From positions 145,521 through 209,520 of the forward strand of contig JANWHW010000028.1 in NCBI GenBank assembly GCA_025450195.1: 64,000 nucleotides of DNA. Direction: 5' to 3'. A model generated the notes under the pieces. It made no database searches. It had not been told where the DNA came from and worked only from the letters and a program-made list of their open reading frames with translations. Positions 39,548-46,303 of the stretch are shown here, in pieces (within the stretch, counting starts at the first letter, position 1; every line of letters starts with the position of its first letter). Made by a program: the position numbers and the translations under genes. This DNA comes from Solirubrobacterales bacterium (lineage in GTDB: Bacteria; Actinomycetota; Thermoleophilia; Solirubrobacterales; 70-9).

Positions 39548-41347
39548 ATGAGCGAATCGTTCCCAGCCCTTCGACCGAATGCATTTCGCGATGCCTGGTG
39601 TGGCCAGGTGCTCGGCGATCGTGTGGATTCCGAGGTGCGGGTGGCAGGCTGGGTGCACCGTCGCCGCGATCACGGCGGCCTCGTCTTCATCGACCTGCGC
39701 GACCGCACTGGAATCGTCCAGCTCGTCTTTCACCCGGACTCCTCCGGTGATGCATTCGAGCTGGCCCACAAACTGCGGGCTGAGGACGTCCTGAGCGCCG
39801 CGGGGAGAGTCGTTCGCCGCTCCGAGGAGACGGTCAACGCTGAGTTGCCGACCGGCGAGTTCGAGCTGGCGGTGGCCAGTGCCGAGCTGCTCTCCGATGC
39901 AGACACGCCCCCCTTCCAGATCGAGGGCTTCTCTGGGGATGTGGGTGAGGACGCTCGCCTACGTCATCGCTATCTCGATCTGCGTCGCGAGCAGATGCGC
40001 GACGCGCTCGTCCTCCGCCATCGGGTGAGCGCCGCAATGCGCGACTTCCTGGACGGCGACGGCTTCCTCGACATCGAGACCCCGGTCCTGACCCGCTCCA
40101 CACCGGAGGGCGCTCGCGACTTCCTCGTCCCCAGTCGACTCCAGCAGGGCTCCTTCTACGCGCTGCCTCAGTCGCCGCAGCTGTTCAAGCAGCTGTTGAT
40201 GGTTGCCGGGTTCGAGCGCTACTACCAGATAGCCCGCTGCTTTCGCGACGAGGACCTGCGCGCCGATCGCCAGCCAGACTTCACCCAGCTCGACATCGAG
40301 ATGTCGTTCGTCGACGTCGACGACGTGATCGCGATCAACGAACGCCTGCTTGTCCACGTCTTCGACCGGGTGGGCGGGCCGGCACTCGATCTGCCGATGC
40401 GGCGCCTTCCCTACGACGAGGCGATCGCCCGCTACGGCACCGACCGGCCCGACACCCGCTTCGGGCTCGAGCTGGTCGATCTCGCAGACGATCTGGCGCA
40501 GACCGAGTTCAAGGTCTTCCGCTCGATGATCGACTCCGGTGGCGCGGTGCGAGGCATCAACGTGGGTGCTCGCGAGATGCCGCGCTCGGCCCTCGATGGG
40601 CTCATCTCCCGCGCCCAAGAGCTGGGTGCGAAGGGGCTCGTTTGGGCTTTCCGCGAGGGCGAGGGGTGGCGTTCGCCGACCGCAAAGTTCCTCTCCGCCG
40701 ATGAGCTGAAGGGATTGAACGAGCGGCTTGGCGCCGAGGAGGGCGACCTCCTCATCGTCGTCGCCGATCGACCCAAGATCGCCAATGCGGTTCTCGGGCA
40801 GCTTCGCCTCGAGCTTGCTGCGGAGTTCGGTTTGATTCCGGAGGGCTCCGATGACCTGCTGTGGATAGTCGATTGGCCCTTGCTGGAGGCAAATGACGAG
40901 GGTGGCTGGGACCCCCTGCATCACCCGTTCACGGCCCCAGCCGCGGATTTCGATCCTGATGACCCCGGCGCGACGAGGGCGCTTGCCTACGACGTCGTCT
41001 GGAATGGCCAGGAGATGGGGGGCGGCTCGATCAGGATCAGCGACTCGGCGGTCCAGCGTGATGTGTTTGCGGCGCTGGGAATCGACGAAGCCGAAGCCGA
41101 GTCGCGCTTCGGCTTCCTGCTGGAGGCACTCCGATACGGCGCCCCTCCGCATGGGGGCATTGCCTATGGCCTGGATCGGATCGTGCAGCGCCTTGCCGGT
41201 GCGGAGTCGATCCGGGACGTGATCGCCTTCCCGAAGACGGCGTCGGGCACCGACGCCTTGACCGGAGCGCCGGCGCCGATTGACGATGGCCAACTGCGCG
41301 AGGTTGGCCTCAAGCTGCGAGCGCAGCCCCCGCCCAGCCGACCATGA
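39548..41347 (+). CDS. aspS: Aspartate-tRNA ligase
   Basis: This class II synthetase of 599 residues has the N-terminal OB anticodon domain ('VHRRRDHGGLVFIDLRDR'), motif 2 'RCFRDEDLRADRQPDFTQLD', a GAD insertion, and motif 3 in 'GGIAYGLDRIVQRLAGAESIRDVIAFPK'. The His in 'RRDHGG' is the residue seen in non-discriminating enzymes that also charge tRNA-Asn, which would need GatCAB; discriminating ones have Leu there. That part is inference. Its stop overlaps the next gene as ATGA. Confidence 0.96.
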   Translation: MSESFPALRPNAFRDAWCGQVLGDRVDSEVRVAGWVHRRRDHGGLVFIDLRDRTGIVQLVFHPDSSGDAFELAHKLRAEDVLSAAGRVVRRSEETVNAELPTGEFELAVASAELLSDADTPPFQIEGFSGDVGEDARLRHRYLDLRREQMRDALVLRHRVSAAMRDFLDGDGFLDIETPVLTRSTPEGARDFLVPSRLQQGSFYALPQSPQLFKQLLMVAGFERYYQIARCFRDEDLRADRQPDFTQLDIEMSFVDVDDVIAINERLLVHVFDRVGGPALDLPMRRLPYDEAIARYGTDRPDTRFGLELVDLADDLAQTEFKVFRSMIDSGGAVRGINVGAREMPRSALDGLISRAQELGAKGLVWAFREGEGWRSPTAKFLSADELKGLNERLGAEEGDLLIVVADRPKIANAVLGQLRLELAAEFGLIPEGSDDLLWIVDWPLLEANDEGGWDPLHHPFTAPAADFDPDDPGATRALAYDVVWNGQEMGGGSIRISDSAVQRDVFAALGIDEAEAESRFGFLLEALRYGAPPHGGIAYGLDRIVQRLAGAESIRDVIAFPKTASGTDALTGAPAPIDDGQLREVGLKLRAQPPPSRP

Positions 41348-41991: not shown

Positions 41992-43464
41992 ATGGAACGG
42001 GAGTCGTTCGAGCACTACCTACGGGATGAGGCGCGGCGCGGTCCGGCCGATCCGGACGCCTACACCGGCGCCGCCGGCGGGGCTGCCTGCGGTGACCTGT
42101 CGCGGATATCCCTCGTCCTGGACGAGGGTCGAATCGATTCGGTCACCTTCGACGCTGAGGGATGTGGGGCGATGCGAGCGGCGACTGCAGCGACGGCCGA
42201 GATGGTCGAGGGCGAGGCAGTGCTGAGCGCCGCGCGGATCGGGATGGACGAGATCGACACCGCCCTAGGAGGGCTGACGCCGGCCAAGCGGCATGCCGCA
42301 CAACTCGCCGCCGATGCCCTGCACCGGGCCTTGGCCACCGCGGCCGCCTCAAGCGATCAATTGGCGCCGGAAGCTCCTTCAAGTGGATCTTCACCGACCA
42401 CCCCGCAGCGGGTCCTGGTCGCGATGTCGGGGGGTGTCGACAGCGCCGTAGCCGCCTTGTTGGAACGGGAGCAGGGGATGGAGGTGATCGGGGTGACCCT
42501 GAAGCTCTGGGCCGACCCCGAGACCGACGGCGCCAAGGCGTGCTGTTCGCCGGAGGCCGTGCTCGGCGCCCGTGCGGTCGCGCACTCACTCGACGTTCCC
42601 CACCTGACGCTCGACCTCGAGGAGGATTTCCGGCGCCGGGTCGTTGGCGCCTTCGTCTCGGGTTATACGGCGGGTGCGACGCCAAACCCATGCATCGTCT
42701 GCAACGGGGAGGTTCGCATTGCGGCGATGGTCGATCTCGCCGAACGGCTCGGGGCCGACTATCTCGTCACCGGCCACTACGCGCGGATCGTCGAGGATGG
42801 CGACGGGCCCCTGCTGGCGGCTGCTTCTGACCGGAACAAGGACCAGAGCTACATGCTGGCCGCCTTGCCCCCGGCGATGCTGACCAAGCTGCGATTCCCC
42901 CTGACCGACATCTCCAAGCCTGAAGTGCGTGACGTGGCTGCTCGTCACGGGCTCTCGGTCGCCCACAAGCCAGAGAGTCAGGACCTCTGTTTCCTTGCCG
43001 GTCAGGGCAAGCAGAAGTTCCTAAGCCGCCACGGCGGGCTCGGGGAGCGTGAGGGCGACGTGCTCGACCGCTCCGGGCAGCCAATTGGGCGCCACCGCGG
43101 CCATCACAACTTCACGGTCGGGCAGCGGCGAGGGCTTGGGGTATCGGCCCCCGAGCCCCTCTATGTGCTTTCCACCGATGCGGCTGCGAACACCGTCACC
43201 GTCGGTGGCCGCGAGGATCTGGCGACGAAGCGGATCAAGGTTCGCGACGCGGTCCTGCATCGCGACGGCGGGATAGTCGATGCCGTGAAGCTCCGCTACC
43301 GGGCGATCGCCGTTCCTGCGGTTTGTGGAGCGCAGGCGGGCCACCACGCAGAGTTGGGCATCGACCTCGAAGAGGCGTTCGATGCGGCCTCGCCGGGACA
43401 GGCCGCCATTCTGTTGGCCGGCGAGACGATCGTCGGTCACGGCACGATCGCGACTGCGGTCTAG
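41992..43464 (+). CDS. mnmA: IscU-like domain fused to tRNA 2-thiouridylase MnmA
   Basis: The C-terminal 350 residues are MnmA, which thiolates U34 of Lys, Glu and Gln tRNAs: P-loop 'AMSGGVDSAVAALL', catalytic Cys in 'CCSPEAV' and 'NPCIVCN', and 'FLAGQGKQKFL'. The first 112 residues look like an IscU/NifU-N scaffold: 'ACGDLS' (Cys33, Asp35), 'GCGAMRAATAATAEMVEG' (Cys58) and 'KRHAAQLAADAL' (His101), where the third scaffold Cys is Ala102. A Ser/Pro/Ala linker joins them. The stop codon lies in a long inverted repeat. The fusion suggests Fe-S or sulfur delivery in cis. No iscS is in the window. Confidence 0.93.
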   Translation: MERESFEHYLRDEARRGPADPDAYTGAAGGAACGDLSRISLVLDEGRIDSVTFDAEGCGAMRAATAATAEMVEGEAVLSAARIGMDEIDTALGGLTPAKRHAAQLAADALHRALATAAASSDQLAPEAPSSGSSPTTPQRVLVAMSGGVDSAVAALLEREQGMEVIGVTLKLWADPETDGAKACCSPEAVLGARAVAHSLDVPHLTLDLEEDFRRRVVGAFVSGYTAGATPNPCIVCNGEVRIAAMVDLAERLGADYLVTGHYARIVEDGDGPLLAAASDRNKDQSYMLAALPPAMLTKLRFPLTDISKPEVRDVAARHGLSVAHKPESQDLCFLAGQGKQKFLSRHGGLGEREGDVLDRSGQPIGRHRGHHNFTVGQRRGLGVSAPEPLYVLSTDAAANTVTVGGREDLATKRIKVRDAVLHRDGGIVDAVKLRYRAIAVPAVCGAQAGHHAELGIDLEEAFDAASPGQAAILLAGETIVGHGTIATAV

Positions 43465-43624
43465 TGTCGTGAGTCGGAGTTTCGCGGCCACCTCGCGGCG
43501 CCCGGGCGCGCATGGACCCACCCGCACGGCACAGGTACTTCAGTACCTGTCTGCCGTGCGTGCGGCCCCAGCCACACCCGGTCACTCGCGACGTTGCACC
43601 CAAAATTCCGACTCACGACACTAG
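43461..43624. repeat. Long inverted repeat between mnmA and alaS (MITE-like)
   Basis: The arms 43461-43482 and 43603-43624 pair over 22 positions with one G-U pair ('TAGTGTCGTGAGTCGGA' core), and both ends are CTAG. The left arm contains the mnmA stop codon. A second, strong hairpin lies inside (CGCACGGCA CAGGTAC / GTACCTG TGCCGTGCG, with a 2-base bulge). The size and end structure suit a small non-autonomous mobile element; a terminator or ncRNA is also possible. Confidence 0.65.
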
Positions 43625-43678: not shown

Positions 43679-46303
43679 ATGAAGGCGCAGGAGATTCGCG
43701 ACACCTACCTCTCGTTTTTCGAAGAGCGGGGGCATAAGGTCGTACCCTCGGCCTCGCTGGTGCCCTCTGTGCACGACCCGTCGGTCCTGCTCACCACTGC
43801 GGGGATGCAGCCCTTCAAGCCGTACTTCCTAGGCCTCGAGCGGCCACCTGCGCCTCGCCTGGCCGATGTGCAGAAGTGCTTCCGGACCACCGACATCGAA
43901 GAGGTGGGAAACACCGCTCGCCACATGACCTTCTTCGAGATGCTCGGCAATTGGAGCTTTGGCGACTACTTCAAGGAAGAGTCGATCCCCTGGGGCTGGG
44001 AGCTCTCGACGCAGGGGTTCGGGATGGACCCGGAGCGGATCTGGGTCACCGTCTTCGGCGGCGATGAGGAGCTCCGGCTTGGTCCCGATCAGGAAGCGAT
44101 AGAGATTTGGCGGCGGGTCGGTGTCCCCGACGAGCGGATCGTCCAGCTCGGCCGCGGCGACAATTTTTGGCAGGCCGGCCCGACCGGTCCGTGCGGCCCA
44201 TGTTCAGAGCTCTACCTCGACCGCGGCGAGGAGTTCGGCGCCGCCGACGAGCGTCCCGGAGACGACACCGATCGCTTCCTCGAGTTCTGGAACCACGTCT
44301 TCATGAGCTACGACCTCGCCGAGGACGGCAGCGTGACCGAGCTGCCGACCCGCAACATCGATACCGGCATGGGCTTGGATCGGATGGCTGCCATCCTCCA
44401 GGACGTTCCCTCGGTCTTCGAGACCGACCACGTGCGGCCGCTGGTTGACCTCGCCGAGGAGCTGTCGGGCCGCCGCTACGAGGAGGGAGGGGAGGTGACC
44501 CGTGCGATGCGGATCGTCGCCGACCACTCTCGCGGCGCTGCCTTCCTGATCGCCGACGGCGTCGTTCCCTCCAACGAGGACCGCGGCTACATCCTGCGCC
44601 GAATCATGCGGAGGGCGATCCAGCAGGGCCGCACGCTGGGCCTTGAGTCGCCCTGGTTGGGACGCTTCGCCGAGCGCACGATCGAGCTGATGGGGGATGC
44701 CTACCCGGAGCTGGCCGTCGAGCGCGAGACGATCGCCCGCTGGGTCGGCGATGAGGAGGAGAGCTTCGGCCGCACGCTGGAGCGCGGCACCGAGCTGCTG
44801 GAGCGCTTGATGGCCGACGCGAAGGACTCCCAAACCTCCTGGATCGACGCCTCCGAGGCCTTCAAGCTGCACGACACCTACGGCTTTCCCTACGACCTCA
44901 CCAAGGAGCTGCTGTCCGAGCAGGGGCTCTCGGTCGATGACGGTGGTTTTGAAGAGCTGATGGAGGAGCAGCGCCAGCGGGCGCGGATGGGCGTCGCCAC
45001 CGCGCACGGCTCAGAGGATCGCCACGGCAAGGTGATGGCCTTCGCCTCAGATGCGGCGCCAAGCCGTTTCGTCGGCTACGAGACCCTGCGCACGACGACC
45101 GGCGTCGCCGCAGTCGAGGTCGAAGACGGGAAGGCGCTGGTCAAGCTGGAGCAGAGCCCGTTCTACGCCGAGGGCGGGGGCCAGGTCGCCGACTCGGGGA
45201 TATTGCGCAAGGGCGACGAGGAGGTCAGGGTGCTCGACGTTTACCGGGTCGGCGATGACCAGGCGCTCGAGGTAGAGCCGGCGAGCGACTGGGTGGCGTC
45301 TGGAGTGGCGGTCGAGGCCGAGGTGGATCACGAGGCTCGCTACGCCACGATGCGCAATCACACCGCGACCCATCTGCTGCACGCCGCCCTGCGGCAGCGG
45401 CTTGGTGACCACGTCCGGCAGGCCGGATCGGCCGTTCGCCCGGACAAGCTGCGTTTCGACTTCACCCATGGGCAGGCGCTGGGCGGCGAGGAGCTTGGCG
45501 CGATCGAGGATCAGGTCAACGAGTGGATCAAGGAGAGTCACCCCGTGCGCTGGCTCGAGATGGCGCGGGAGGAGGCCGAAGGGCTCGGGGCGATGGCGCT
45601 GTTCGGAGAGAAATACGGCGAGTGGGTTCGCGTCGTGGAGGTCGACGGCGTATCGAGGGAGCTGTGTGGAGGAACGCACATCGCCAACACAGCCGAGGTC
45701 GGGATCTTCAAGATCGTCTCTGAGGGGTCGAGCGCCGCGAACGTGCGCCGAATCGAGGCGCTCAGCGGCCCCGCCGCGATCGATTGGTTTCGAGCTCAGG
45801 AGCAGAGCCTGCGCGAGGTCGGAGAGCTGCTGGGCAGCCCACAGGACCCACTGACCGGGGCTAGCCGCGCAGCTGAGCGCCTTCGCGAGGCGGGGGAGGG
45901 GGCCAGGGAGGCCGAGAAGCAGCAGCTGGCCGAGGAAGCGGACCGCCTCGCCTCCGATGCGGCCAAGGTGGGTGGGGTGGCGTTGGTTTGCGCACGCACG
46001 GGGCTTGCCGACCAAAAGCAGCTGCTTGACCTCGGAAGCAGAGTTCGATCGAAGCTGCCCGAGGAGTCGGCTGTTGTCTTGGGTGGTGCCGACGGTGGCA
46101 AGGTCGGGCTGGTGGTTTTGGCCTCCAAGGCCGCGGTGGCACGCGGGCTCTCGGCCGCGGCGATCGTTCGCGAGGCAGCGCCGGTCATCGGAGGCGGTGG
46201 GGGCGGTCGGGACGACATGGCGCAGGCCGGCGGCAAGGATGCCGCCAAGTTGGACGAGGCCCTTGCGGTCGCGCGGCAGGCCGTCGAGCGAGGCATGGGC
46301 TAG
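43679..46303 (+). CDS. alaS: Alanine-tRNA ligase
   Basis: This class II synthetase charges tRNA-Ala and edits Ser- and Gly-tRNA. The 874-residue protein has 'FEMLGNWSFGDYFKEESI', 'WNHVFMSYDL'-type motif 3, the editing site 'HTATHLLHAALRQRLG' and 'CGGTHIANTAEVG', and a C-terminal Gly-rich DHHA1 domain ('GGGGGGRDDMAQAGG'). The length is normal. It follows mnmA and precedes ruvX and mltG, as in Bacillus. No T-box leader is seen in the short gap. Confidence 0.98.
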   Translation: MKAQEIRDTYLSFFEERGHKVVPSASLVPSVHDPSVLLTTAGMQPFKPYFLGLERPPAPRLADVQKCFRTTDIEEVGNTARHMTFFEMLGNWSFGDYFKEESIPWGWELSTQGFGMDPERIWVTVFGGDEELRLGPDQEAIEIWRRVGVPDERIVQLGRGDNFWQAGPTGPCGPCSELYLDRGEEFGAADERPGDDTDRFLEFWNHVFMSYDLAEDGSVTELPTRNIDTGMGLDRMAAILQDVPSVFETDHVRPLVDLAEELSGRRYEEGGEVTRAMRIVADHSRGAAFLIADGVVPSNEDRGYILRRIMRRAIQQGRTLGLESPWLGRFAERTIELMGDAYPELAVERETIARWVGDEEESFGRTLERGTELLERLMADAKDSQTSWIDASEAFKLHDTYGFPYDLTKELLSEQGLSVDDGGFEELMEEQRQRARMGVATAHGSEDRHGKVMAFASDAAPSRFVGYETLRTTTGVAAVEVEDGKALVKLEQSPFYAEGGGQVADSGILRKGDEEVRVLDVYRVGDDQALEVEPASDWVASGVAVEAEVDHEARYATMRNHTATHLLHAALRQRLGDHVRQAGSAVRPDKLRFDFTHGQALGGEELGAIEDQVNEWIKESHPVRWLEMAREEAEGLGAMALFGEKYGEWVRVVEVDGVSRELCGGTHIANTAEVGIFKIVSEGSSAANVRRIEALSGPAAIDWFRAQEQSLREVGELLGSPQDPLTGASRAAERLREAGEGAREAEKQQLAEEADRLASDAAKVGGVALVCARTGLADQKQLLDLGSRVRSKLPEESAVVLGGADGGKVGLVVLASKAAVARGLSAAAIVREAAPVIGGGGGGRDDMAQAGGKDAAKLDEALAVARQAVERGMG

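What the first reader, a model, noticed from the sequence alone, without database searches (positions are those of the whole stretch)
41992..43464. IscU-like scaffold domain fused to MnmA, with the third scaffold cysteine lost
The first 112 residues keep IscU Cys33/Asp35, Cys58 and His101, but the third Cys is Ala102. Fusion to the U34 thiolase suggests that the domain hands sulfur or an Fe-S cluster directly to MnmA, which bears on the proposal that some MnmA enzymes use an Fe-S cluster. Loss of one ligand suggests a transfer role rather than full scaffold activity.
Basis: partly seen in the sequence, partly recalled or inferred. Interest (0 to 1): 0.75.

Follow-up and report, generated by a model that had tools for sequence, protein, structure and literature searches.

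The report
tRNA-thiolating enzyme carrying a broken iron-sulfur scaffold
In a deep branch of soil and heat-loving actinobacteria, the enzyme that puts sulfur on a tRNA wobble base has been joined to a copy of the cell's iron-sulfur scaffold protein whose metal site has always lost its fifth residue, which suggests the copy now serves as a built-in sulfur-donor dock rather than a scaffold.

Summary
Observation confirmed. ORF 41992-43464 (490 aa) is an IscU-like domain (NifU_N, residues 15-115) joined by a fast-evolving linker to a complete MnmA. C33, D35, C58 and H101 are present and the third Cys is Ala102. The MnmA is the "C-type" (CC-CxxC-C), the subtype with a [4Fe-4S] cluster in Thermus.

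The fusion is not an oddity of one genome: it runs through Thermoleophilia and Rubrobacter, with two further separate fusions in Actinomycetota. Elsewhere, iscS-iscU-mnmA are separate neighbouring genes.

None of 82 fused domains keeps the full IscU site (C,D,C,H,C). They keep either C,D,C,H (window's lineage, Rubrobacter), or C,D,C,-,C (the SufU set), or are decayed. In one family all Cys are gone. In human ISCU2, C,D,C,H is the resting metal site and the missing Cys is the persulfide receptor. So "one ligand lost" really means that the acceptor is lost while a four-ligand metal site is kept under purifying selection.

Genomes of the window's order lack IscS and a second IscU, and mostly TusA. 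Their only complete cysteine desulfurase is SufS. Best reading: a tethered desulfurase-docking/sulfur-relay module for MnmA, not a scaffold. Function is untested; Fe-S delivery or a structural role remain possible.

The parts
41992..42345 (+). IscU-like (NifU_N) domain, residues 1-118
   Evidence: Pfam PF01592 71.7 bits; IscU fold in AF2 model, target TM 0.84 to ISCU2; dN/dS 0.11-0.28
42088..42090 (+). Cys33 codon (CGD motif; equals IscU first Cys, ISCU2 Cys69, SufU Cys40/41)
   Evidence: alignment, invariant in 41/41 of the window's order
42094..42096 (+). Asp35 codon (ISCU2 Asp71)
42163..42165 (+). Cys58 codon (ISCU2 Cys95)
42292..42294 (+). His101 codon (ISCU2 His137)
42295..42297 (+). Ala102 codon, in place of the third Cys (ISCU2 Cys138, the persulfide receptor)
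   Evidence: never Cys in 58 C,D,C,H-type fused sequences; role of Cys138 from PMC11021402
42346..42402 (+). interdomain linker, residues 119-137, fast evolving
   Evidence: low pLDDT block (71-77) in the model; high dN in the linker
42403..43455 (+). MnmA (tRNA 2-thiouridine(34) synthase), residues 138-488
   Evidence: NF001138 348.8 bits, over cut-off; fold match to 2hma/2det
42427..42444 (+). PP-loop SGGVDS of MnmA, residues 146-151
   Evidence: sequence; invariant
42541..42546 (+). CC motif (Cys184-Cys185) of C-type MnmA
   Evidence: invariant in the fused set
42691..42702 (+). CxxC (Cys234, Cys237) of the MnmA active site
   Evidence: invariant
42988..42990 (+). Cys333, third catalytic Cys of MnmA
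   Evidence: invariant
39548..41347 (+). upstream neighbour aspS; no iscS lies between it and the fusion
   Evidence: gene order hisS-aspS-fusion-alaS-ruvX-mltG-aroE kept in relatives; some families carry iscS directly before the fusion
43679..46303 (+). downstream neighbour alaS

Best explanation
The IscU-like domain is a tethered sulfur-donor module for MnmA, derived from an iscS-iscU-mnmA operon. It keeps a mononuclear metal site (C33, D35, C58, H101; Zn or Fe). It uses that site to dock the cysteine desulfurase (here necessarily SufS, the only complete one found) and to bring the persulfide next to the MnmA active site (Cys234/Cys237/Cys333, presumably with its [4Fe-4S] cluster). The sulfur would pass either through C33, as in SufU, or directly from the desulfurase. 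It is no longer an Fe-S assembly scaffold, because the fifth residue has been lost. Shown here: homology, fold, fusion, residue pattern, selection, gene content. Inferred: metal binding, docking, and sulfur transfer to MnmA.
For: (1) The four residues of the resting IscU metal site are 100% conserved in 41 sequences of the window's order, in a domain with only 14 columns of 119 conserved at 95% or more. The third Cys is never there. (2) The domain is under purifying selection about as strong as MnmA's. (3) Among 82 fused domains none has C,D,C,H,C; 58 have C,D,C,H and 11 have C,D,C,-,C. Each of these is a complete four-ligand metal site known from free IscU or SufU (PMC11021402; PMC10216065). 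(4) The genome has no IscS-type desulfurase and no second IscU, only SufS with SufU. The same holds in the other genomes of the order that were tested, and TusA is absent in this genome and 8 other genomes of 13 tested. Its SufS has the HAHD motif that contains the His which swaps onto the SufU zinc (by position relative to the catalytic Cys). (5) The ancestral order is iscS-iscU-mnmA as separate genes in Bacillota, Chloroflexota and other Actinomycetota; iscS still sits directly upstream of the fusion in Rubrobacter and two Thermoleophilia families. (6) In SufU the acceptor is the Cys of the CGD motif, which is kept here.
Against: In human ISCU2 no persulfide forms when the third Cys is replaced (PMC11021402), so transfer by the ISC mechanism should fail. 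B. subtilis MnmA is served directly by a desulfurase with no adaptor (PMC5372745). One family (f7) has a shortened, Cys-free version yet keeps an intact MnmA, so the role is dispensable or different there. The genome also has a normal SufU as SufS partner. The domain evolves about twice as fast relative to MnmA as free IscU does.
Confidence: 0.45

Rival explanations
1. Structural or regulatory leftover: the domain is kept because it packs against MnmA and stabilises it or helps tRNA binding; the metal site is only a folding element.
For: A whole family (f7) keeps a short conserved Cys-free remnant, nested inside the fused clade (SH-aLRT 99), still recognisable by profile (7-16 bits against a shuffle maximum of 6.4) and predicted as folded. 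Further decayed sites in f9, f15 and part of f8. Faster evolution than free IscU. The high pTM (0.92) suggests a defined domain placement.
Against: In the window's order, f5 and Rubrobacter all four metal residues are invariant in a domain that otherwise diverges freely. The repeated either/or loss at His-Cys, with the rest of the site kept, is more ordered than plain decay.
Confidence: 0.3
2. Fe-S delivery: the domain binds a [2Fe-2S] (or Fe) through C,D,C,H and loads the [4Fe-4S] cluster of the C-type MnmA.
For: MnmA is CC-CxxC-C, the type with a [4Fe-4S] in Thermus (PMC8584467, PMC11784392). The domain descends from an IscU scaffold.
Against: Loss of the third Cys removes the persulfide receptor, and the N-terminal Tyr that serves ISCU2 dimerisation is missing in the window's order. 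Genomes with the decayed or Cys-free domain keep the same MnmA cysteines. C-type MnmA elsewhere works without any fused scaffold.
Confidence: 0.18
3. Chance or annotation artefact (read-through of two genes or misassembly).
For: Two families and many other phyla do have two separate adjacent genes.
Against: Open fused frame in dozens of genomes of several families, in complete single-contig genomes too; purifying selection across the domain.
Confidence: 0.01

Closest known systems
IscU / NifU N-terminal scaffold (PF01592; M. thermoacetophila IscU 7c8m, human ISCU2)
   Same: fold and three-dimensional match; C33, D35, C58, H101 in place
   Different: third Cys (persulfide receptor) lost; N-terminal Tyr absent in this order; not free-standing; fails the NifU_clost and IscU curated cut-offs (65.8 of 187.9 and 51.7 of 192.4 bits)
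SufU zinc sulfurtransferase
   Same: four-ligand mononuclear site; the CGD cysteine that serves as acceptor is kept; SufS is the only complete desulfurase found in the genome
   Different: lacks the SufU insertion; fourth ligand is His, not Cys, in the window's lineage (Cys in f10, f11, f54 and part of f8); weak SufU profile score (31.1 of 92.5 bits)
C-type MnmA (T. thermophilus, M. tuberculosis)
   Same: PP-loop, CC, CxxC and third Cys all kept; scores over the MnmA equivalog cut-off
   Different: carries the N-terminal IscU-like domain
YrvO-MnmA of B. subtilis (dedicated desulfurase next to mnmA)
   Same: abridged sulfur route without the Tus relay
   Different: here no desulfurase next to mnmA and no IscS in the genome; instead an IscU-like domain on MnmA

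Membership tests
IscU scaffold | five assembly-site residues C,D,C,H,C | tested here: not met
   C33,D35,C58,H101,Ala102; none of 82 fused domains has all five; 14 of 14 aligned unfused IscU do
IscU scaffold | IscU fold | tested here: met
   target TM 0.84, 1.5 A to ISCU2
IscU scaffold | N-terminal Tyr | tested here: not met
   canonical rows start MYSEKV; window starts MERESFEHY
IscU scaffold | curated equivalog score (NifU_clost, IscU) | tested here: not met
   65.8 of 187.9 and 51.7 of 192.4 bits
IscU scaffold | binds and transfers a [2Fe-2S] cluster | not testable with these tools
   needs protein
SufU | Zn ligands C,D,C,C | tested here: not met
   C,D,C,H in the window; C,D,C,-,C in f10, f11, f54, part of f8
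SufU | SufU profile cut-off | tested here: not met
   31.1 of 92.5 bits
SufU | accepts persulfide from SufS on the CGD Cys | not testable with these tools
   C33 is present, activity unknown
MnmA, C-type | PP-loop SGGVDS, CC, CxxC and third Cys | tested here: met
   all invariant in the fused alignment
MnmA, C-type | MnmA equivalog cut-off | tested here: met
   348.8 bits against 284
MnmA, C-type | [4Fe-4S] cluster | not testable with these tools
   reported for T. thermophilus MnmA (PMC8584467); not shown here

The most novel reading that the evidence does not exclude
An IscU relative has been turned, at least three times by fusion to MnmA, into a dedicated four-ligand metal-site sulfur dock that lets the desulfurase at hand (SufS in the window's order) feed tRNA thiolation without IscS, IscU or Tus proteins, with loss of the fifth residue selected so that it cannot build clusters.
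Probability: 0.25. Interest if true: 0.72.

Novelty: new variant of a known kind. Interest (0 to 1): 0.52.

Why it matters
Whether MnmA works with a persulfide or an Fe-S cluster, and how sulfur reaches it where IscS and Tus proteins are absent, is an open dispute (PMC11784392). A single polypeptide that covalently joins a partly disabled IscU to an Fe-S-type MnmA is a ready test case: removing or mutating the domain asks directly whether the donor side is persulfide, metal or cluster. The repeated either/or loss of His or Cys is also a natural mutagenesis of the IscU site.

Tried and rejected
Centring whole-genome searches on Bacillota or Chloroflexota: not possible. Matches reported across residues 1-487 in Bacillota and Chloroflexota looked like fusions but are two separate adjacent ORFs. 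My first statement that f5 also lacks IscS was wrong: with an IscS-type profile an unlinked IscS next to TusA appears there. The Foldseek search with the Cys-free f7 remnant gave no IscU match among the best 50. Model coordinates and PAE were not available, so no distance between C33 and the MnmA site could be measured. No held paper describes the fusion.

Full report
What is there. Window 41992-43464 (+) encodes one intact 490-residue protein. Residues 15-115 are a NifU_N/IscU domain (71.7 bits, cut-off 22, when scanned alone) and residues 140-486 a full MnmA (348.8 bits, cut-off 284). By sequence the best solved structure for the N-terminal part is an archaeal IscU (7c8m, E 3e-18). An AlphaFold2 model built only from window and named-locus sequences has mean pLDDT 94.7 and pTM 0.92. 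Its two parts match MnmA crystal structures (2hma, target TM 0.87) and human ISCU2 (7rtk_D, target TM 0.84, 1.5 A). The MnmA part has Cys184-Cys185, Cys234xxCys237 and Cys333, the CC-CxxC-C pattern of C-type MnmA, for which a [4Fe-4S] cluster is reported in Thermus thermophilus (PMC8584467; PMC11784392).

How widespread. Of 199 genomes of the class, 193 have a match to the whole protein. Across families f1-f5 and f8-f11 the match reaches into the N-terminal domain; family f7 has MnmA with a shortened N-terminal extension. Named records place the window's relatives in Solirubrobacterales/Thermoleophilaceae, and the second large group (f22) with Rubrobacter. Further fusions occur in families f54, f72 and f15 of the same phylum. 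In Bacillota, Chloroflexota and other Actinomycetota the genes iscS, iscU and mnmA are separate neighbours. A MnmA tree puts Rubrobacter and Thermoleophilia in one clade (SH-aLRT 99) in which all members are fused or carry the remnant, with two exceptions: one Rubrobacter relative with a stop codon between the parts (L090), and one Thermoleophilia MAG with overlapping separate genes (L211). f54+f72 and f15 lie elsewhere, so there are probably at least three fusion events (quick tree, moderate supports inside the clade).

The residue pattern. Across 82 fused domains (one truncated), 58 have C,D,C,H followed by Ala, Gly or Val; 11 have C,D,C,x,C; one is D,D,C,D,C; 11 are decayed (f9, f15, part of f8); none has C,D,C,H,C. 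All 14 aligned unfused IscU proteins have the full set; the split protein of L090 has lost the third Cys like its fused relatives. On the tree the two kinds are interleaved, so several separate losses are likely, though the inner supports (83-94) do not fix the number. In human ISCU2, Cys69, Asp71, Cys95 and His137 bind the metal in the free protein and Cys138 is the persulfide receptor; no persulfide is seen in C138S (PMC11021402). In SufU, zinc is held by C,D,C,C and the acceptor is the Cys of the CGD motif (PMC10216065). Both fused kinds therefore keep a complete four-ligand site and drop the fifth residue. This reading of the pattern is my inference.

Is the domain alive. In 41 sequences of the window's order, C33, D35, C58 and H101 are each invariant, within 14 of 119 columns conserved at 95% or more (chance of all four landing there about 1e-4; the sequences are related, so this number is only a guide). 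Between the window's protein and close relatives, dN/dS of the domain is 0.11-0.28, like that of MnmA (0.16-0.33), while the linker changes fast. On the other hand the domain diverges about 1.3-1.6 times as fast as MnmA, whereas free IscU diverges 0.6 times as fast. In f7 the Cys residues are all gone and a helix is missing; the remnant is still found by a profile (7-16 bits, 232 shuffles reach at most 6.4) and predicted as folded, nested inside the fused clade.

Gene content. The genome (91% complete) has two NifU_N proteins, this one and a SufU beside SufS. SufS is the only complete cysteine desulfurase found. The other genomes of f1-f4 that were tested also have no IscS-type enzyme (the related proteins seen at lower scores were not all classified), and TusA is absent in 9 of 13 of them, including this genome. 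f5 has an unlinked IscS next to TusA; f22, f10 and f11 have iscS directly upstream of the fusion; f8 and f9 have a separate iscS-iscU pair. The neighbourhood hisS-aspS-fusion-alaS-ruvX-mltG-aroE is shared.

Mechanism. I favour a tethered desulfurase dock and sulfur relay: the metal site binds the desulfurase, and persulfide sulfur reaches the MnmA cysteines directly or through C33. Shown: fusion, fold, conserved four residues, missing receptor Cys, purifying selection, absence of other relay parts. Not shown: metal, docking, transfer. Two rivals remain serious: a structural leftover, favoured by f7 and the decayed families, and cluster delivery, which I rate lower because the receptor Cys and the N-terminal Tyr are gone and because C-type MnmA works elsewhere without such a domain.

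Verdict. A real, class-wide and apparently undescribed domain fusion (none in the held literature) of two well-known families: a new variant of a known kind, of moderate to good interest because it makes the MnmA sulfur-donor question testable in one protein.

Noticed in passing
window 43461-43624: Near-perfect 164-base palindrome starting at the mnmA stop codon, between mnmA and alaS (24-base outer arms, inner hairpin); DNA fold z-score -7.1; single copy in this genome, no full-length match in 40 other genomes of the family.
   Followed up: partly
L090 1247-2750: A Rubrobacter-family genome with the IscU-like part and mnmA separated by one TAA stop, with the third Cys already lost: probably a secondary split.
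   Followed up: partly
L211 2524-5075: Thermoleophilia MAG with iscS, a canonical IscU (C,D,C,H,C) and a slightly overlapping mnmA: looks like the pre-fusion state, but its tree position is uncertain.
   Followed up: partly
L268 and L272 (G122:C1:1262690-1264056; G007:C1:2209452-2210797): Family f5 keeps an IscS-type desulfurase next to a TusA-like gene, away from the fusion.
   Followed up: no
L100, L101: Family f15 fusions in which the otherwise constant CC motif region of MnmA is replaced (DSAAPT, MYQVNS at the aligned place), while CxxC is kept.
   Followed up: no
L102: A family f33 MnmA with a divergent N-terminal extension that still scores 19.4 bits with the fused-domain profile: possibly another decayed fusion.
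   Followed up: no
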